Source of the DNA: Candidatus Oscillibacter pullicola
GTDB lineage: Bacteria; Bacillota; Clostridia; Oscillospirales; Oscillospiraceae
Direction: 5' to 3'
DNA: 64,000 bases
Assembly: GCA_019118935.1 (NCBI GenBank)
Contig: DWXY01000124.1
Location: 1 to 64,000 of the forward strand
The position numbers and the translations under genes are program-made. Under the pieces are notes generated by a model that made no database searches, was not told the origin of the DNA, and worked only from the letters and a program-made list of their open reading frames with translations. The number at the start of each line of letters is the position of its first letter. Positions within the stretch are counted from its first letter, which is position 1. This document shows, piece by piece, positions 24,630 to 55,292 of the stretch.

Positions 24630-24662
24630 AACCGGCTGGGAGGGAGGTCCTCTCAGCCGGTT
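24630..24662. terminator. Bidirectional terminator between the amidase and recombinase genes
   Basis: A 14-base arm (24630-24643) pairs with 24649-24662 with one mismatch. T-rich sequence follows on the plus strand. Confidence 0.7.
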
Positions 24663-25675
24663 TCCTTTGGCTTTTTCTTTGATTTTTTTACATGTGACAA
24701 GGGATTTGCCTTTGCAGCTATCCGCAGGGATTCGTTGTCGATGTGGGTGTAGATTTCCGTGGTGTTCAGATGGTCGTGGCCCAGCACCTCCTGGACGGCC
24801 CGGACGTCCACGCCGTTCTGCAGCATCAGCGTGGCGGCGGTGTGCCGCAGCTTGTGGGAGCTGTACTCCGCCGGGTCGATGCCCGCCTGACCCAGCCGCT
24901 TTTTCACCATGGCGTGGACCGTGGAGCGGCTGATCCGCTCGTTCTGGGAGGAGAGGAAGAGGGCGTTTGCGTCCCGGCCGGTGATGGGCCGCCGCACCGC
25001 CAGATATTTGGCGATGGCGTCCTGGCAGGCGTCGTTCAGGTAGATGATCCGGACCTTGTTGCCCTTGCCAAGAACCCGCAGGGCATCCTCCTGGATGTCG
25101 GAGAGGTTCAAACCCACCAGCTCGCTGATCCGCAGCCCGCAGTTGAGGAACAGCGTCAGGATGCAGTAATCCCGCTCCTGATTTTTGCCGTCCACGGAGT
25201 CCAAAAGCTGGATGCTCTCGTCCAAGGTCAGGTATTTGGGCAGGGTTTTCTTCAATTTCGGAGAATCCATATCTTTGACAGGATTTTCACGAAGTAAGTG
25301 CATCTTATTGGTGAGGTAGTTGTAAAACGACCGGATCGTGGCGATCTTCCGGGCCCGGGACGCGGCGTTGAGGCCGTAGCCGGAATTGGGGCTGTTCTGG
25401 TGCTGGACCCGGTCCCGGCTGAGGTACGTCATGTAGCCGTAAATGTCCGTCAGGGTCACGGAGGCCACGAAGTCCAGATCCACGTCCATGATGTCGATCT
25501 CGTCCAGAGACCGGTCACGCAGGGACGGGTCCCGGGTCTGCTTGAGATAGCGGAAGAAATTCCGCAGGTCCAGGAAGTATTCGTCCACGGTCCGCTTGGA
25601 GTGGGCTTTGATGGTCTCGTGGTACGAGAGAAAGTCCCGCAGAATCTGCGGCGCTTCGGTGCGGTAATCAGCCAT
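24653..25675 (-). CDS. Tyrosine recombinase (XerC/phage-integrase family)
   Basis: A 340-residue site-specific recombinase. An N-terminal SAM-like core-binding domain (LRDFLSYHETIKAHSKRTVDEY) is followed by the catalytic domain with all expected residues: Arg in GLRISELVG, Lys in LGKGNKVRII, HKLRH, GHDHLNTTE, and the nucleophile Tyr in EIYTHIDNE. The C-terminal tail is Lys-rich. I chose the start at 25675 from protein homology. No good ribosome binding site is visible and the frame is open further upstream, so the start is uncertain. It borders the accessory island and could be its integrase or a XerC equivalent. Confidence 0.87.
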   Translation of the reverse strand: MADYRTEAPQILRDFLSYHETIKAHSKRTVDEYFLDLRNFFRYLKQTRDPSLRDRSLDEIDIMDVDLDFVASVTLTDIYGYMTYLSRDRVQHQNSPNSGYGLNAASRARKIATIRSFYNYLTNKMHLLRENPVKDMDSPKLKKTLPKYLTLDESIQLLDSVDGKNQERDYCILTLFLNCGLRISELVGLNLSDIQEDALRVLGKGNKVRIIYLNDACQDAIAKYLAVRRPITGRDANALFLSSQNERISRSTVHAMVKKRLGQAGIDPAEYSSHKLRHTAATLMLQNGVDVRAVQEVLGHDHLNTTEIYTHIDNESLRIAAKANPLSHVKKSKKKPKETG

Positions 25676-26220
25676 AACGGTGTCAACTTGCGGGCAGATG
25701 TTCGGCGCAGCCGCGGAGCGGCTTCCGGAGGGACTCAGGCCGTGCCGGGGGCCTGAAAAGGGCTCCAGAGCGGTTTGCCTCTCCCCTAGATTGAACAAAA
25801 TTTTTATTTTGTTCAAAAACACAGGTCCTACAAAAAGGGCCATCCCCTCCGGGTCCGCCCCTTTTCTCCGTCCCTGGTTTCTGTCCGGTCCTCGCCCTGA
25901 CGTCCCGTCAGGCTGCGCGCGGAAAAGCCGTCCAAGCATCGCCGCAAGCCGCGTCTTTTCCGCGCTTGGGCTTCGCCGCTGCGGACCAACAAAATAAGGG
26001 TCTTTTGTGCAATTTCGCGGCCAATGACCCTGCATTTTCGGGCCACAGGCTCCCGCATCTGCCCGCGTGTCTCCTTTCCTGAAAGATGGCGCCGCCGGGG
26101 CTGTTCTACCGCCGTGGCGCAGGATTTGATGGGTGTCAACCCCTTCGTGAAAAGGTGCAAGGGGTTGACACCCTCAGTATAGTGCGCCACTACCCCTTTT
26201 GTCAACCAAAAGTTTACCAC
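25676..26220. other. Intergenic region rich in inverted repeats between two recombinases
   Basis: No gene is supported here. It contains perfect or near-perfect dyads: an 11-bp TTGAACAAAAT stem with a TTTT loop at 25791-25816, a CCTGACG/CGTCAGG dyad near 25899-25915, an 11-bp GCGCGGAAAAG/CTTTTCCGCGC pair around 25916-25966, and the 15-bp inverted repeat at 26131-26173. Such density fits recombination or regulatory sites, but none can be assigned. Confidence 0.5.
26131..26173. promoter_or_regulatory. Perfect 15-bp inverted repeat with GGGGTTGACA core
   Basis: GGGTGTCAACCCCTT (26131-26145) and its exact complement (26159-26173) flank a 13-base spacer. The motif GCAAGGGGTTGAC in the right arm recurs at 27934-27946 and, with one change, at 28516-28528. 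It may be an operator, a replication site or a recombinase site. Confidence 0.55.
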
Positions 26221-26751
26221 TCACCGTCCCCGCGCGGCCCGTCTCCGCTCCATCAGCTGCTGCCTGTCGCTGAGCAGCTGGTCCGCCATGGCGTAAATGG
26301 CTGTGACCGCCAGCGAGCTGTGGGCCAGCGCCCGCTGGACCTTCTCGATGCTGCCGTACTTCTCCCGCAGCCGCACGGCGTAGACCTTGCGGAAGCTATG
26401 TGTCCCAATGTTTTGCGGCAGCCGGAAGGCCTTGGCCGCCCGCTTCACGTCCTTCCAGACGGCCTGCCGGGTCTTGTGGGTCCCCGGCTTGCTGCCGGGG
26501 AACGCCCAGACCTCCCCGGCCTGGGCCCGGATGGCCGCCAGAAGGTCCTTCGGCAGGCCGCAGCGGTGCTTCTTGCCCGTCTTTTTTTCCAGCACCCACA
26601 TGGAGGGCGCCAGCTGCTCCGTGCGCAGGTCCAGCACGTCCGAAATCCGCAGACCGGTATGTAAAACGGTCTCAAGGATCAGCGCGTTTTGCCTCGTCAG
26701 CAGGGCCAGGACGCGCCCCAGCTCATAGTCCAGCAGGAACTCCGTTCTCAT
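26221..26751 (-). CDS. Small single-domain tyrosine recombinase/integrase
   Basis: A 176-residue protein made of the catalytic domain alone, without the N-terminal core-binding domain, as in FimB/FimE-sized recombinases. The conserved residues are Arg in GLRISDVLDL, Lys near KKTGKKHRC, HSFRK, LAHSSLAVT, and the nucleophile Tyr in AIYAMAD. GGAGG seven bases before the ATG at 26751 supports this start. It lies downstream of the HUH Rep gene on the same strand, with a palindrome-rich 149-base gap. Inversion or integration of the island is a plausible role. Confidence 0.85.
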   Translation of the reverse strand: MRTEFLLDYELGRVLALLTRQNALILETVLHTGLRISDVLDLRTEQLAPSMWVLEKKTGKKHRCGLPKDLLAAIRAQAGEVWAFPGSKPGTHKTRQAVWKDVKRAAKAFRLPQNIGTHSFRKVYAVRLREKYGSIEKVQRALAHSSLAVTAIYAMADQLLSDRQQLMERRRAARGR

Positions 26752-26810
26752 CGCAAAACCTCCATCACTCCCCCCTTTCAGGGGGTCATTTTTGCCGCCC
26801 ACTCCGCCGC

Positions 26811-26832
26811 AGCCCCTGGGCCCCAGGGGCTG
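26811..26832. terminator. GC-rich palindrome between rep and the small recombinase
   Basis: AGCCCCTGG and CCAGGGGCT pair around a GCC loop. It may be a terminator without a strong T tract, or a site of action. Confidence 0.35.
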
Positions 26833-26900
26833 GCGGGCGCGGTTGACAATCCGAAAAAAGTAAACCAGCCGCCGTGGCCCGAAAATCCGGACGCGGCTTT

Positions 26901-27797
26901 TCAGCCGCCGCCGGTTCCCTTACAAGAATCTTGTAAAGGCGACTGCCGCAGCCGCAGGAAGCGGGCCCAGGGCAGGGCCTCGATCTGGAAGGGCTCCGCC
27001 CCCTCCGCCCGCAGCAGGGTCTCAAAATCCACGTCCGACCAGGACACCTGCGGCCGCCGCAGCCGCCCGCCGGAGTAGTACCACCGCCCGCCGATCTTTT
27101 CCTGCTGCTTGGCGATGTACTTGCAGCAGTAGCCCACGGCGGCGGCCCGCTCGCCGTACAGGCGAATGGCGGTGGAGAAGCCCCAGCCCCAGGCTGGCAG
27201 GTTGTAGATGGGGTGCCCGCCCTCGTCCCGGTGGCCGCTGTCCACAGCGGCCAGGGCGCCGTTGAAGAAGCCGTGAAAGTGGATGGCCCCGTCCCTGTGG
27301 TGCTCCGGCACCAGGACGTACGAGAGGCCGTCCCGGCGCACCCGGTTGTCCAGCCAGTGGTTCAGGTGGCGCACCACCTCCGCCGGGTCATACCGGTCGA
27401 TGCGGGCCGGGTCCAGGGTCAACGTGACGAAGTATTCCCAATCGTTGCAAAGGCCCAGGTCCCGGACGGCCACGCGGGCCCGCCGCTGGGCCCGCTCCCG
27501 GCTGGCCCTGGCGGCCCGTTCCGCCCTGGCCCTGGCCTCGCGGCCGTCCTCGTCCTGGATGGCCTCCCGTTCCAGCAGCTCATAGTCGGCCTCCCGCTCC
27601 GCCAGGGACCGGCGCCGGGGCGGCGCCAGGGGGTCCGCGTCGCCGTCGAATCGCTCCGGCTCCCGGCGGACCTCCCCGCCCCCAAAGGGGGCGGAGGCCG
27701 CCACGATCTCCGTGCTGCCGTCGGGGTACCGCTTCACGCGGCAGTTGTGCAGCTGTTCCATGGTCTCATCAGCTGGCAGATGGGAATGGGACATCAT
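26901..27797 (-). CDS. HUH-type rolling-circle replication initiator (Rep)
   Basis: A 298-residue protein resembling Rep proteins of small plasmids and single-stranded DNA phages. In order it has a motif-I-like EYFVTLTLDP, the metal-binding HFH at residues 173-175 (AIHFHGFFNG), and the tyrosine motif GYCCKYIAKQ with Tyr223 and Tyr227 as candidate nucleophiles. The N-terminal 110 residues are charged and rich in Arg, Ala and Glu. The start is uncertain because no clear Shine-Dalgarno is visible. With the small recombinase it suggests an integrated plasmid or phage-like element. No capsid or mobilisation gene is present. Confidence 0.8.
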   Translation of the reverse strand: MMSHSHLPADETMEQLHNCRVKRYPDGSTEIVAASAPFGGGEVRREPERFDGDADPLAPPRRRSLAEREADYELLEREAIQDEDGREARARAERAARASRERAQRRARVAVRDLGLCNDWEYFVTLTLDPARIDRYDPAEVVRHLNHWLDNRVRRDGLSYVLVPEHHRDGAIHFHGFFNGALAAVDSGHRDEGGHPIYNLPAWGWGFSTAIRLYGERAAAVGYCCKYIAKQQEKIGGRWYYSGGRLRRPQVSWSDVDFETLLRAEGAEPFQIEALPWARFLRLRQSPLQDSCKGTGGG

Positions 27798-28812
27798 CCC
27801 GGCCAGGGCGGGGCAGCCCCAGACAGAGCCCTGTCAGGGCGCCCCTCTGACGGAATAATGTCCTAATATCAAGTAGGGGGCCGCCCCCTTCGGGGGCTTG
27901 ACAGCAGCGCCGCCGCTGTGGTACGATAGACCCGCAAGGGGTTGACTCTGCCAAGAGTTTTCCTTCCCGGAAGCGTCCAGGCCACGGCCTGGGCGCTTTC
28001 CTTTTGCGCCGGACGCCGTCCCTTGTGGATGGTGCTCCTTGCAGCGGGGCGTCGGGGGGCCGCAGCTGCGGGCCCGCCTTGCGGCGGCTCCCTCCGCCCT
28101 GGCCCCCGCTCCGTGCCCCGCTTGCCCCGTGCTCGCCCCCTCAGGGGGTCTGCGCCGGGGCGAACCAAGGTGGGGCGCATGGGCAGCCCCCGCCGTTGGC
28201 GGGGGTCCGCTGTCGCCTGCCCGCGCCCCCGGCGGGGCCGCTCGCGGGCCGCTCCTGGGCGGTCGCGGCAGCCTCTGCCGCCCCCCTGGCGGGCCAGCGC
28301 CCCACAGGGGGCGCGGCCCGCCATTCCCCCCTCGGCGGCCCTTGGGCCGTTCCTCGGGGGCGGTGCTCCGGCGGCCCCGCCTCCGGCGCGTGGGGGCTCT
28401 GGCCTGTTCCGCGCCGGGCCTGTCCGCTGCCTGGTCCTTCTTCCCCTGGCGCTTCCGCCCGCAGCCCTCGCCCCTTCCCCCTCCCGTCCCCCTCCCCCTC
28501 CGGGGGCGGGGGAGCGCAAGAGGTTGACGCCCGCTGCGGCGGGGACGGGCGGCGCCCCCCTACCCCAGCGCACAAAAAAAGCCTCCCCGCCTGTGGCTCC
28601 CGCCACCCGCGAAAAGGCACAAAAGACGTATTTTGTTCAATTTTCCATCTTCCCGCAAAACCTCCTTCCCTGACAGGTCTATTGAAAATTTCCAGACCGG
28701 ACCACAGCCGCAGCGACGGCGGCACACGCCGGAATGCGCGGCGCATCTCCGGACCGGACATAAAAACCGCCGCTTTCGGCAAAGCTAGTCCCAAATCCAT
28801 GGAGATGGGATG
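27798..28812. other. GC-rich non-coding region of the accessory island
   Basis: No credible gene is present. Open frames exist in several phases but encode only Pro/Ala/Arg/Gly low-complexity sequence, as expected for very GC-rich DNA. The region holds a plus-strand promoter (27898-27927), two GGTTGAC repeats, and many CCCCC/GGGGG hairpins between about 28030 and 28510. It is next to the Rep gene and could contain the replication origin or a structured RNA; this is inference. Confidence 0.5.
27898..27927 (+). promoter_or_regulatory. Plus-strand promoter reading into non-coding DNA
   Basis: TTGACA (27898-27903), an 18-base spacer and TACGAT (27922-27927) with an extended TG. No gene follows on this strand for about 0.9 kb. 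Confidence 0.6.
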
Positions 28813-29052
28813 ATGTGTATGAGTTTGATTCCCTGTACCAGCCAATGTGTGTACCAGCAGGACGGCGTCTGCACGCTGGACAGCGCCGCCGCGGCGGGCC
28901 TCCCCGCCCTGGGCGGCGCCTGCGTCCACTTCATTCCGACGGACGAAGGGCGGCTCGGATCGCCTCACCGATATTCCGCACCGGGATCAGCCGAAGCCCC
29001 GCAGGCGCGGCCAGCTCCCCGGTCCGGCGGGACGGGATCAGGCACTGGGTAA
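28813..29052 (+). CDS. Small Cys-rich protein, 3' end overlapping radA
   Basis: The first 45 residues (CMSLIPCTSQCVYQQDGVCTLD, then CVHFIP after a spacer) match a family of about 50-residue clostridial proteins with a CxxxC...C...C pattern. Such proteins are sometimes mis-named hydroxymyristoyl-ACP dehydratase. GGAGATGGG lies upstream of the ATG. Family members normally stop just after the last Cys, but here the frame continues for another 30 low-complexity residues across the convergent radA 3' end. The stop may have been lost by rearrangement at the island border. Confidence 0.6.
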   Translation: MCMSLIPCTSQCVYQQDGVCTLDSAAAAGLPALGGACVHFIPTDEGRLGSPHRYSAPGSAEAPQARPAPRSGGTGSGTG

Positions 29053-30307
29053 AGCCCAGCCGCCGGACCTCGCTGACCCGCTGGCCCAGCTGGCTGACGG
29101 ACCGCAGCTCCCCGGTGAGGCCCACCTCCCCGATGGCCACCAAATCCGCCGGCACCGGCCGGTCCAGATAGCTGGAGGCCAGGGCGATCACCGCCGCCAG
29201 GTCCGCCGCGGGCTCGTCCAGGCTCAGTCCGCCGATGATGTTCAGATATGCGTCGCAGGCGGAGACCTTCAGGCCGCCCCGCTTCTCCAGCACCGCCAGC
29301 AGCATGGCGAATCGGTTGTAGTCAAAGCCGTTGCTGGTGCGGCGGGGATTGCCCGCCGGAGACGACACCGCCAGCGCCTGAATCTCCGCCAGCACCGGCC
29401 TTGCCCCCTCCATCACGCAGGTGACGCAGGTGCCGGGGGCGTCCTCGGGGCGGCCGGACAGCAGCATCTCCGACGGGTTCTCCACCTCCACGAGGCCGCT
29501 GTCCCGCATTTCAAAGACGCCGATCTCATTGGTGGCGCCGAAGCGGTTCTTGGCCGCCCGCAGGATGCGGTAGGCGGTGTGCTGGTCCCCCTCGAAGTAC
29601 AGCACGCAGTCCACCATGTGCTCCAGGACCTTGGGGCCGGCGATGGACCCCTCCTTGTTCACGTGGCCGATGACGAACACCGTGATTCCCTGCCCCTTGG
29701 CCAGCTGCATCAGAGCCATGGTGCAGTCCTTCACCTGGCTGACGCTGCCCGCCGGGGACTCCAGCGCGTCGTTGTACAGGGTCTGGATGGAGTCCACGAT
29801 CAGCACGTCCGGCGCCTCCGCCGCCACGGACTCCAGCAGGTCCCCCAGGCTGGTCTCGGAGATCACGAACAGCCGTTCGCTCTGCACGTCCAGCCGCTTG
29901 GCCCGGAGCTTCAGCTGGTGCTCCGACTCCTCGCCGGATACATACAGCACCTTATTCTCCCGGCAGAGGCTCTCGCAAATCTGGAGCATCAGCGTGGACT
30001 TGCCGATCCCCGGCGCGCCGCCCACCAGCACCAGCGAGCCCTTGACGGCGCCGCCGCCCAGGACCCGGTCCAGCTCTCCCATGCCGGTGGAGAACCGGAT
30101 TTCCTCGTCCGCCTCCAGCTCTGTCACCGGCCGGGCCCGGCGGACGGTCCCCCTTCCTGCCGGGCGGGAGGCCCCCTTCCCTGCCGCCTTGGCGGCCTGG
30201 GGCTGCTCCACGATGGTATTCCACGCCCCGCAGGCCGGGCACTTCCCCGCCCATTTGGGCGTCTCATTGCCGCACTCCGTGCAGTAGAACAGGGTCTTGG
30301 GTTTCAT
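28931..30307 (-). CDS. radA: DNA repair protein RadA/Sms
   Basis: RadA is a hexameric helicase that drives branch migration in RecA-mediated recombination. The 458-residue protein has the N-terminal zinc finger CTECG...CPACG, the RecA-like core with Walker A GGAPGIGKST, the RadA-specific KNRFG motif, and a C-terminal Lon-protease-like domain (VSACDAYLNIIGGLSLDEPAADL). Of two adjacent ATGs I prefer 30307, which is five bases from GGGAGG. Its 3' end overlaps a convergent small gene. Confidence 0.95.
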   Translation of the reverse strand: MKPKTLFYCTECGNETPKWAGKCPACGAWNTIVEQPQAAKAAGKGASRPAGRGTVRRARPVTELEADEEIRFSTGMGELDRVLGGGAVKGSLVLVGGAPGIGKSTLMLQICESLCRENKVLYVSGEESEHQLKLRAKRLDVQSERLFVISETSLGDLLESVAAEAPDVLIVDSIQTLYNDALESPAGSVSQVKDCTMALMQLAKGQGITVFVIGHVNKEGSIAGPKVLEHMVDCVLYFEGDQHTAYRILRAAKNRFGATNEIGVFEMRDSGLVEVENPSEMLLSGRPEDAPGTCVTCVMEGARPVLAEIQALAVSSPAGNPRRTSNGFDYNRFAMLLAVLEKRGGLKVSACDAYLNIIGGLSLDEPAADLAAVIALASSYLDRPVPADLVAIGEVGLTGELRSVSQLGQRVSEVRRLGFTQCLIPSRRTGELAAPAGLRLIPVRNIGEAIRAALRPSE

Positions 30308-30319
30308 CATAACCTCCCA

Positions 30320-53740: not shown

Positions 53741-54628
53741 TTATGCCCGGGGATGGGCTTTCTGATACACATCCTTCAGCTGGTGCTTCACCACATGGGT
53801 GTAGATCTGGGTGGAGGAGATGTCCGCATGGCCCAGCATCTCCTGGATAGACCGCAGGTCCGCGCCGTTTTCCAGCAGGTGGACGGCAAAGGAGTGGCGC
53901 AGGGTGTGGGGCGTGATGTCCTTTTCGATCCCCGCCTTCTCCTGATAGTACTTGATGATCTTCCAGAACCCCTGGCGGCTCATGCGCTCGCCGTTCATGT
54001 TCACGAACAGGGCCTGCTCGCCGCCGTCGGCGATCAGCTGGGGCCGGATATCCCGCACATAGTCCTGCAGCGCCTTCACGGCCGTGTGGTACAGGGGGAT
54101 GATCCGCTCCTTGCCCCGGCTGGCACACCGGATGAAGCCCGCGGAGAGATTCAGGTCCTTCAGGTCCAGGGAGATCAGCTCGCTGACCCGGATGCCGGTG
54201 GCGTACAGCAGCTCCAGCATGGCGTGATCCCGATATCCCTTGGCGTCCACGCACTGGGGCTGCTCCAGAAACAGCTCCACCTCTTTGCTGGTGAGGATCT
54301 CCGGATACTTCCGCTCCGCCCGGTCCGCGCTGATGCTCTTGGCGGGGTTGGCCTTTACGGCGCCGGCGGAGAGCAGGAAGTTGTAAAACGACTTGACGGA
54401 GGCCAGGAACCGGGTCACCGAGGCGGCGGACTTCCCCCGTCCCCGCATCCAGCTCATGTAGTCCTGGATCATCTCTCCGCCGGCCTGCCGCAGCGTGCAG
54501 CTCTGGTGCTCCCGCAAATACGCGGAGAACTGGGTCACGTCCCGCAGATAGGAGCAGATGGTGTTCTGGGAGGCGTGCCGCTCCTCCGCCAGATAAGTCC
54601 CAAAGTCCGCGATGTCGTCTCTTGCCAA
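53741..54628 (-). CDS. xerD: Site-specific tyrosine recombinase XerD
   Basis: XerD works on chromosome dimers at dif sites. The 295-residue protein has the N-terminal core-binding domain (FGTYLAEERHASQNTICSYLRDV) and the catalytic domain with Arg in ATGIRVSELISL, Lys in RGKERIIPL, HTLRHSFAVHLL, LGHADISST and Tyr in TQIYTHV. It uses a TTG start with GGGAGGAG upstream. It follows spoIIM by 28 bases; this spoIIM-xerD pairing is also seen in Bacillus. Confidence 0.92.
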   Translation of the reverse strand: MARDDIADFGTYLAEERHASQNTICSYLRDVTQFSAYLREHQSCTLRQAGGEMIQDYMSWMRGRGKSAASVTRFLASVKSFYNFLLSAGAVKANPAKSISADRAERKYPEILTSKEVELFLEQPQCVDAKGYRDHAMLELLYATGIRVSELISLDLKDLNLSAGFIRCASRGKERIIPLYHTAVKALQDYVRDIRPQLIADGGEQALFVNMNGERMSRQGFWKIIKYYQEKAGIEKDITPHTLRHSFAVHLLENGADLRSIQEMLGHADISSTQIYTHVVKHQLKDVYQKAHPRA

Positions 54629-54656: not shown

Positions 54657-55292
54657 CTACCCCAGGATGCGCTCCAGCATCAGCCGCAGCAGCACCGGGG
54701 ACAAAAACAGCTCCGCACACACACCCGCCAGCAGCGCCAGACAGCAGGCGCCGAACCGGACCCAGCAGGCCTGGCCGTAGACCACGGGGGCAGTCCGCCG
54801 TCCTCTCCCAAAGGACACGGCCGCCAGTCCCGCGGACGTCCCCCAGGAGGACGCCGCCAGCAGGAAATAGCAGGGCATGGTCACCAGGCACCGCAGGCCG
54901 AACACCGCCAGGGCCAGCAGCACGCCGTCCACGCCGAAGGCCGCCGTGAAGCAGCACACGGAAAAGGACAGAAAAAAGCCGTAAGCCGCCGTCACACAGG
55001 GCAGCAGCACCACCCCGATGGAGGCGAACCCCAGCAGAAATGCAAGCAGCGGATAGCGGAAATAGATCACCAGGGCCGACAGAGCCGTCTGGGCGGTGGG
55101 CGCTCCCTCGCCCCCCAGGCGGACGTAGTCCTCCAGATACCGCCGCAGCTCGTCCCCCGTGGTGTCCGGCACCCGGCCCGACAGGACCTGTCCCAAAAGG
55201 ACGCCGGCCAGGAAGAACAGCGCCAGCAGAAGCAGGCGGGGCAGCGTGGGCAGCTGGACCGTGGGCCGCTTCGTCAATGTTCTCGTGTTCAA
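54657..55292 (-). CDS. spoIIM: Stage II sporulation protein M
   Basis: SpoIIM is the membrane component of the SpoIID-SpoIIM-SpoIIP engulfment machine. The 211-residue protein has four or five hydrophobic segments, including LLLLALFFLAGVLLGQVLSG and YPLLAFLLGFASIGVVLLPCVTAAYGFFLSFSV. A charged loop follows the first helix, as is typical of the family. It appears to start at TTG 55292, with GAGGTGAGG upstream. Its partner SpoIID-like protein is encoded at 19.8-21.2 kb. Confidence 0.9.
   Translation of the reverse strand: MNTRTLTKRPTVQLPTLPRLLLLALFFLAGVLLGQVLSGRVPDTTGDELRRYLEDYVRLGGEGAPTAQTALSALVIYFRYPLLAFLLGFASIGVVLLPCVTAAYGFFLSFSVCCFTAAFGVDGVLLALAVFGLRCLVTMPCYFLLAASSWGTSAGLAAVSFGRGRRTAPVVYGQACWVRFGACCLALLAGVCAELFLSPVLLRLMLERILG

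What the first reader, a model, noticed from the sequence alone, without database searches (positions are those of the whole stretch)
24653..28812. Integrated element with HUH Rep, two tyrosine recombinases and no structural genes
A rolling-circle-type Rep, a catalytic-domain-only recombinase and a full tyrosine recombinase lie on one strand, flanked by dyad-rich DNA and a 1-kb GC-rich non-coding stretch. There is no capsid, relaxase or cargo gene. It may be a minimal integrative plasmid or the remnant of a single-stranded phage.
Basis: partly seen in the sequence, partly recalled or inferred. Interest (0 to 1): 0.6.

Follow-up and report, generated by a model that had tools for sequence, protein, structure and literature searches.

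The report
Minimal plasmid parked at chromosome terminus
A 2.8-kb rolling-circle plasmid with two genes has inserted into the site that gut Dysosmobacter bacteria use to separate joined chromosomes, probably as a folded single DNA strand, a route established until now mainly for the cholera phage CTXphi.

Summary
The window is from a Dysosmobacter (Oscillospiraceae) genome. The full recombinase (24653-25675) is a core xer gene next to a perfectly palindromic dif site at the replication terminus, not part of the element. In 24 relatives only about 320-490 bp separate it from radA. Removing 25807-28630 from the window gives 96.7% identity over 1977 bp to the empty site of a close relative.

The element (2824 bp) carries a catalytic-domain-only tyrosine recombinase, an intact inovirus-type HUH Rep with two tyrosines, a conserved nick-site motif 5' of rep, and GC-rich non-coding DNA. 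The same rep/recombinase pair recurs across Oscillospiraceae, at xer/dif wherever the flank could be read except one unresolved case, and in tandem arrays. Recombinase homologues ride free circular 2.2-3.8-kb plasmids with other rolling-circle Reps.

At the circle junction, two inverted dif-like sites fold into a branched hairpin (z -6 to -11; 30 of 71 pairs compensated; 0/500 shuffles reach this). This matches CTXphi's single-stranded attP geometry.

Best reading: an integrative rolling-circle plasmid of the IMEX class that enters dif as folded ssDNA through host Xer. It is intact, not a remnant. The role of the small recombinase is unproven.

The parts
25807..28630 (.). Whole inserted element (one period, 2824 bp)
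   Evidence: Removing it gives 96.7% identity over 1977 bp to the empty site of G060 with an intact 28-bp dif; same boundaries in L077/L095/L098
25790..25817 (+). dif / attL: ATTGAACAAAA TTTTTA TTTTGTTCAA(A); perfectly palindromic 11-bp arms, 6-bp centre
   Evidence: About one copy per genome in 64 of 86 genus genomes (39 of 42 good ones), next to xer in the fetched loci; at the GC-skew flip and opposite dnaA
25984..26013 (-). Internal inverted dif-like site (ATTGCACAAAA N8 TTTTGTTGGTC), partner of attR in the predicted folded attP
   Evidence: Same position and orientation in L077 and L095; complementarity 21.9 against at most 13.0 in 300 shuffles
25817..26013 (-). Element-left arm of the predicted folded attP hairpin (with 28600-28630 across the circle junction)
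   Evidence: Fold z = -6.35 (+) and -7.34 (-); covariation in four elements
26221..26751 (-). Catalytic-domain-only tyrosine recombinase (P0002, 'CATR'); pentad R-K-HxxR-H-Y complete and conserved
   Evidence: PF00589 1.2e-20; alignment of 12-13 homologues; AlphaFold model matches integron integrase IntI4, P2 Int, XerH
26901..27797 (-). HUH rolling-circle Rep (P0003), HFH motif and two tyrosines Y223-xxx-Y227; true start may be 27761
   Evidence: PF23343 1.5e-12; invariant H173, H175, Y223, K226, Y227, K230; nearest phage Reps are Inoviridae
27848..27875 (-). Predicted double-strand origin, TACTTG^ATATTAGGACATTATTCCGTCA, nick predicted between 27870 and 27869
   Evidence: Once, on the rep strand, 5' of rep in all 9 elements and both L154 copies; 0.03-0.06 copies of CTTGATA expected
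27876..28613 (.). GC-rich non-coding region with a conserved block around 28480-28530 (candidate sso or other cis site); overlapping long ORFs look spurious
   Evidence: Alignment of four elements
28614..28641 (+). attR: AAGGCACAAAA GACGTA TTTTGTTCAAT; left arm from the element, right arm chromosomal
   Evidence: last two centre bases follow the host dif (TA or CA) in each element
24653..25675 (-). Host core gene: divergent XerC-like recombinase (P0001) adjacent to dif; NOT part of the element
   Evidence: TIGR02224 233 bits against cut-off 335; orthologues 72-99% identical in about 45 same-genus genomes
28931..30310 (-). Host radA, right flank of the empty site
   Evidence: xer-radA synteny in 24 empty-site genomes
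53741..54628 (-). Host XerD (P0004), possible second partner at dif
   Evidence: TIGR02225 357.9 bits against cut-off 329.6

Best explanation
The element is an integrative rolling-circle plasmid of the IMEX kind (integrative mobile element exploiting Xer), inserted at the host's dif site. Steps, with their status: (1) Rep nicks the origin at 27870^27869 and makes single-stranded circles of rep-strand polarity: inferred from HUH/two-Tyr motifs and a conserved nick motif. (2) In that strand, two inverted dif-like sites about 170 nt apart pair into a branched hairpin whose stem imitates dif with a mismatched centre: supported by predicted energy and covariation, not by experiment. (3) Host Xer (P0001, perhaps with XerD P0004) exchanges strands between the hairpin and dif next to the right arm, and replication fills in: inferred by analogy with CTXphi and from att-site sequences. 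(4) The intact dif is regenerated at attL, while attR carries an incompatible centre: shown by the sequence. (5) The small recombinase P0002 most likely resolves multimers or helps excision of this plasmid family: the weakest step, because it also occurs on free plasmids that lack a visible att hairpin.
For: Empty sites in 24 of 40 fetched same-genus xer-radA loci, and a 96.7% identical empty site once the element is removed. dif identity: about one per genome, GC-skew flip, near the antipode of dnaA in three complete or near-complete genomes. The same site holds other ssDNA replicons in relatives: gokushoviruses with Phage_F capsids at 1e-172 and 1e-173, and inovirus-like inserts. The rep+CATR pair is next to xer/palindromic dif in many Oscillospiraceae. 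Tandem arrays of period 3417 bp (L172) and 2544 bp (L154), 99.6-99.7% identical, with the circle junction directly readable in L172. Folded attP: z -6.1 to -11.0 in six elements, 30 of 71 pairs compensated, covariation 0.423 against 0.149, 0/500 shuffles, slid controls 0.04-0.14. Complementarity was present in all nine elements tested and absent from both gokushoviruses and from inoviruses G030 and G033. Nick motif in all elements. CATR on free circular plasmids, including pRGI00952 with 12- and 6-nt centres and a 3296-bp Dysosmobacter circle.
Against: No reads or experiments show a free circle of this very element, ssDNA or recombination. In the window the circle junction is inferred; only L172 and the free plasmids show one directly. 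Both strands fold, so the energy does not show which strand reacts. Covariation rests on four sequences, and part of the core pairing follows simply from both sites imitating a palindromic dif. For G024 one complementarity test lay below the shuffle maximum (15.8 against 17.4) although a longer query exceeded it. Free CATR plasmids without a visible att pair exist (L179, L183, L185, L186), so CATR is not tied to integration.
Confidence: 0.75

Rival explanations
1. It is an IMEX at dif, but it integrates as ordinary double-stranded DNA (VGJphi or TLCphi type); the inverted sites are binding, regulatory or dimer-resolution sites rather than a single-stranded substrate.
For: attR is itself a 6-nt-centre dif-like site with an intact right arm. 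Gokushoviruses G067/G085 and inoviruses G030/G033 at the same dif have no inverted partner, so the host machinery can evidently use simple sites.
Against: The branched hairpin extends well beyond the dif arms, with compensated outer stems and side stems. The circle-form site has an incompatible centre in every element. Some elements have 9-10-nt centres that pair to 6-nt centres only in the fold.
Confidence: 0.17
2. It is a satellite of a filamentous phage: it replicates itself and is packaged by helper inovirus proteins, like TLCphi or RS1. (Compatible with the best explanation; concerns how it spreads.)
For: The Rep is closest to inovirus Reps; there are no structural genes; inoviruses use the same dif in related genomes; TLCphi is a dif-integrated satellite with only a replication module (PMC4246890).
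Against: Zot (PF05707) was found in only 1 of 12 genomes searched, most of them carriers of the element (divergent Zot can be missed). No relatives in IMG/VR viral contigs. CATR relatives with plasmid Reps occur as free plasmids.
Confidence: 0.25
3. CATR, not host Xer, is the integrase, acting alone or as partner of P0001.
For: The pair rep+CATR is inseparable in dif-integrated mini elements, the catalytic residues are complete, and phages at the same dif without a CATR use host Xer.
Against: It lacks the core-binding domain; CATR also occurs on free plasmids without dif-like sites (L186 and others); the target is the host's own dif.
Confidence: 0.25
4. A decayed prophage remnant.
For: Inovirus-type Rep, no structural genes.
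Against: Intact ORFs, origin and attP; relatives of 2.5-3.4 kb in several genera have the same compact gene set and recent 99.7%-identical tandem copies.
Confidence: 0.04

Closest known systems
CTXphi (and its satellite RS1), V. cholerae: ssDNA IMEX with folded attP(+) (PMC5357621, PMC4246890)
   Same: Rolling-circle replicon at dif; two inverted dif-like sites near the circle junction folding into one hairpin; unequal centres (12 and 5-7 in CTXphi; 6 and 8 here, 10 and 6 in Flavonifractor, 12 and 6 in pRGI00952); centre bases next to the exchanged arm match dif; tandem arrays
   Different: No phage genes, about 2.8 kb, in Bacillota with a palindromic dif beside the xer gene; encodes its own small tyrosine recombinase; longer loop (about 170 nt, three side stems)
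TLCphi satellite phage (PMC4246890)
   Same: Replication module only, at dif, no structural genes
   Different: TLCphi integrates as dsDNA through a single degenerate site; here a paired foldable site and a recombinase gene
Legionella XerL/dif and LME-1 (PMC9765430)
   Same: Perfect dyad dif arms; IMEX regenerates intact dif on one side and a modified dif on the other
   Different: Here dif is adjacent to the xer gene, a bona fide XerD also exists, and LME-1 has no reported ssDNA route
XerS/difSL and XerH/difH (PMC5357621)
   Same: Recombinase gene next to its dif
   Different: dif is 28 bp with 11-6-11 geometry and XerD-like arms; P0001 scores as XerC/XerD rather than XerS
Small circular plasmids of the rat cecum metamobilome (PMC3913684)
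   Same: 2.2-3.8 kb, a catalytic-only tyrosine recombinase plus a rolling-circle Rep in most
   Different: Rep types differ (Rep_1, RepB, RepL); the paper gives no Xer/dif interpretation; integration not reported
Gokushovirus and inovirus prophages at dif (PMC3091885, PMC7062461, PMC7307601)
   Same: Same integration target and PF23343 Rep family
   Different: They carry capsid or morphogenesis genes

Membership tests
IMEX (integrative mobile element exploiting Xer) | Inserted exactly at the host dif, regenerating dif | tested here: met
IMEX (integrative mobile element exploiting Xer) | The target is the terminus dif: single copy, skew flip, opposite the origin | tested here: met
   (G060 about 6% of the genome off the antipode but at the skew flip)
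IMEX (integrative mobile element exploiting Xer) | Integration is catalysed by host Xer | not testable with these tools
   Inferred only
CTXphi-type attP | Two inverted dif-like sites near the junction forming a folded ssDNA structure | tested here: met
   Predicted by folding and covariation:
CTXphi-type attP | Only the folded single strand is recombined | not testable with these tools
   Needs a recombination assay
CTXphi phage itself / Inoviridae | Filamentous phage structural and morphogenesis genes (capsid, Zot) | tested here: not met
   No such ORF in 25807-28630
Rolling-circle replicon with HUH Rep | HUH motif, catalytic tyrosines, conserved nick site | tested here: met
   fold match to HUH nucleases only weak
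Tyrosine recombinase (P0002) | R-K-HxxR-H/W-Y catalytic set and fold | tested here: met
Single-recombinase dif/Xer system (XerS, XerH, XerL type) | Only one Xer acts at dif | tested here: inconclusive
   Symmetric dif arms and linked gene, but a XerD equivalog exists
Conjugative or mobilizable element | Relaxase or oriT | tested here: not met
   No relaxase ORF; related plasmids typed non-mobilizable; oriT not searched
Phage satellite | Helper-dependent packaging | not testable with these tools
   Resident helper not found as a rule

The most novel reading that the evidence does not exclude
A widespread family of capsid-less two-gene plasmids in gut Bacillota enters the chromosome as folded single-stranded DNA at a palindromic, xer-linked dif, a CTXphi-like mechanism outside phages and outside Proteobacteria, with a plasmid-encoded minimal tyrosine recombinase taking part.
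Probability: 0.6. Interest if true: 0.75.

Novelty: new variant of a known kind. Interest (0 to 1): 0.62.

Why it matters
Integration of folded single-stranded DNA by Xer is established for CTXphi of Vibrio. If the same solution is used by tiny plasmids in common gut Firmicutes (Dysosmobacter, Flavonifractor), it becomes a general route for rolling-circle replicons to become vertically inherited, and it links rolling-circle plasmids with ssDNA phages that use the same target. The work also gives the dif sequence and its recombinase for a large gut family; no such assignment was found in the literature searched. That makes chromosome dimer resolution, and insertion at dif, testable there. Finally, it assigns a context to orphan 'integrase'-bearing mini-plasmids known since 2014.

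Tried and rejected
Full recombinase as element gene: rejected, core gene. Core-gene explanation of rep/CATR: rejected, empty sites. Terminal inverted repeats of a transposon (25988-26020 against 28607-28627): these proved to be the two arms of the att hairpin. Bacillus-type dif: absent in four genomes with 3 mismatches. A first control that searched only the left side suggested that inoviruses at this dif lack a paired site; searching both sides showed a right-hand pair in G070, G032 and G083, so folded attP is not unique to the mini elements. Relatives in IMG/VR: none for Rep, one weak for CATR. Rep in PDB by sequence: none. Helper phage in carrier genomes: not found as a rule. Long ORFs in the GC-rich region (e.g. 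27869-28606): not conserved as protein, treated as spurious. Strict CATR-att linkage: rejected, plasmids L179, L183, L185 and L186 show no dif-like pair. L154 tandem array: no dif of the usual form found at its ends in the fetched 10.5 kb, left open.
Full report
What is in the window. ORF listing and HMM scans confirm three minus-strand genes: a full tyrosine recombinase (24653-25675, P0001), a recombinase with only the catalytic domain (26221-26751, P0002, here CATR) and an HUH Rep (26901-27797, P0003, PF23343 REP_ORF2-G2P, 1.5e-12). GC rises to 70-72% in the non-coding part. Nothing between 25.8 and 28.6 kb resembles a capsid, relaxase or cargo gene.

Core gene versus element. P0001 has orthologues of 72-99% identity in about 45 same-genus genomes and a match in all 31 good ones. 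P0002 and P0003 occur as a pair only in G000, G013, G014 and G024 of that set, and always just upstream of P0001. Record titles name the genus Dysosmobacter. Of 40 fetched xer loci, 24 have only about 320-490 bp between xer and radA, with one dif-like 28-mer in the middle. Joining the window flanks across 25806/28631 gives 96.7% identity over 1977 bp with the empty site of G060, including an intact ATTGAACAAAA-TTTTTA-TTTTGTTCAAT. The element is therefore 25807-28630, 2824 bp, and P0001 is outside it.

The site is dif. The 28-mer occurs about once per genome in 64 of 86 genus genomes, 39 of 42 of the good ones, and beside xer in the fetched loci. In G084 it lies at 2079 kb with dnaA at 475 kb of a 3156-kb contig; in G108 at 2072 kb with dnaA at position 22 of 4410 kb; in G060 at 3550.5 kb with dnaA at 1972 kb of 3576 kb, and GC skew changes sign at the site (+0.051 to -0.055; the window itself +0.018 to -0.037). 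No Bacillus-type dif was found with 3 mismatches in four genomes. Across the family the arms change symmetrically (ATTGAACAAAA, ACTCAACAAAA, AGTAAACAAAA, ACGCAACAAAA, each with its exact reverse complement). This suggests that one recombinase binds both arms, but a XerD equivalog is present 28 kb away, so a single-recombinase system is not shown. P0001 itself is below the XerC cut-off (233 against 335 bits).

A hot spot for ssDNA replicons. In other Dysosmobacter genomes the same dif holds gokushoviruses (G067, G085: capsid PF02305 at 1e-172 and 1e-173, phrog_514) and inovirus-like inserts with M13-protein-I/Zot-like ATPases (G030, G033; similar inserts in G070, G032, G083). The window's Rep is nearest to Reps of Inoviridae such as bajarodino virus 76 (31.5%, taxonomy; Dulem virus 66).

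The element family. Rep+CATR pairs were found in Flavonifractor, Pelethomonas and other Oscillospiraceae. Strong Rep hits (E <= 1e-25) occur in 21 of 401 family genomes and 13 genera; some of these are Rep without CATR. Wherever the CATR partner and the flank could be read, xer and a perfectly palindromic dif were adjacent; the tandem array L154 is the unresolved exception. Element lengths are 2542 to 3417 bp. L172 carries two head-to-tail copies (3417 bp, 99.7%), so its circle junction is read directly. L154 is a 2544-bp tandem (99.6%).

The folded attP. In the circle, attR's left half (AAGGCACAAAA GACG..) and an inverted internal site (25984-26013) are about 170 nt apart. Folding with DNA parameters gives a dif-like stem closed by two or three side hairpins; z-scores are -6.1 to -11.0 in six elements on either strand. 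For the four Dysosmobacter elements the consensus has 71 pairs, 30 of them with changes on both sides. Covariation is 0.423 against 0.149 +/- 0.029 in shuffles (0/500), and sliding the partners drops it to 0.04-0.14. Shuffles do not keep relatedness, so the slid control is the more telling one, though the structure was derived from these same sequences. An inverted partner is present in all nine mini elements tested. It is absent from both gokushoviruses and from inoviruses G030 and G033, while inoviruses G070, G032 and G083 have their own pair on the other side. CTXphi has attP1 with a 12-bp centre, attP2 with 5-7, 90 bp apart, folding into about 150 nt (PMC4246890; PMC5357621). Flavonifractor elements have 10 and 6, the window element 6 and 8. 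The last two centre bases of attR follow the host dif (TA with TTTTTA, CA with TTTACA or TTTGCA), as expected if the crossover lies beside the right arm.

Replication origin. A motif TACTTGATAYnRGG..TATTsCGTCA occurs exactly once on the rep strand, just 5' of rep, in nine elements and both L154 copies; 0.03-0.06 occurrences of the CTTGATA core are expected. From general knowledge, CTTG^ATA is the nick core of phiX174 and pC194-type origins. The Rep has H173-F-H175 and invariant Y223/Y227. The AlphaFold model (pLDDT 79) finds HUH nucleases among its best but weak matches. The predicted nick makes the rep strand the single strand released.

Free plasmids. CATR homologues (38-61%) are carried by complete circular 2.2-3.8-kb plasmids from rat cecum, with Rep_1, RepB-type or RepL replication proteins in most. 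pRGI00952 (2482 bp) has inverted dif-like sites with 6- and 12-nt centres and folds at z -10.5; L181, L182 and L184 have paired sites as well. A 3296-bp circle (77-bp terminal overlap) with Rep_1 and CATR lies in Dysosmobacter G013, without a visible att pair. So the recombinase is a plasmid gene of general use (multimer resolution is my guess), Reps are exchangeable, and the dif-mimicking hairpin is what makes a lineage integrative. The plasmid paper counts 83 phage-integrase genes but does not discuss Xer or dif (PMC3913684).

Verdict. A new variant of a known kind: a CTXphi-like, probably ssDNA-integrating IMEX that is a plasmid and not a phage, in Bacillota. Anatomy, target and family are well supported. 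The ssDNA route is strongly suggested by sequence, and the enzymology is untested. Literature searches found no description of these elements; the library is open-access only.

Noticed in passing
L072 2720-6683 (G067) and L130 7228-10986 (G085): Gokushovirus prophages (Phage_F capsid, PF23343 Rep) inserted at the Dysosmobacter dif; the dif-integrated gokushovirus prophages in the papers seen here are from Bacteroidetes and enterobacteria.
   Followed up: partly
L085, L124, L126 (G070, G032, G083): Inovirus-like inserts at the same dif with a paired inverted dif-like site on the opposite (right) side, 56 nt apart: an apparently independent folded attP.
   Followed up: partly
window 28810-28930 (+), also in the empty-site loci: Conserved short ORF between dif and radA (M(S)LIPCTSxCVYQxDGVCTLDSAAAAG..GGACVHF), a Cys-rich microprotein of unknown function.
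   Followed up: no
window 53741-54628 and 54657-55292: XerD equivalog next to a spoIIM-like gene, 28 kb from the dif-linked XerC-like gene; both Xer genes lie near the terminus.
   Followed up: partly
L186 (G013 contig 44): A 3296-bp circular contig in a Dysosmobacter MAG with Rep_1, CATR and about 0.9 kb of GC-rich non-coding DNA; a second plasmid type in a genome that also has the integrated element.
   Followed up: partly
L138 7865 and 9349, L139 4870, L140 6754, L141 7004: Second, less perfect dif-like sites elsewhere in some genomes, possibly att sites of other elements.
   Followed up: no
L090, L093, L097, L100 (G076, G006, G074, G082): Inserts of 1.7-2.6 kb between dif and radA without Rep or recombinase, e.g. 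with a TetR-like regulator in G076.
   Followed up: no
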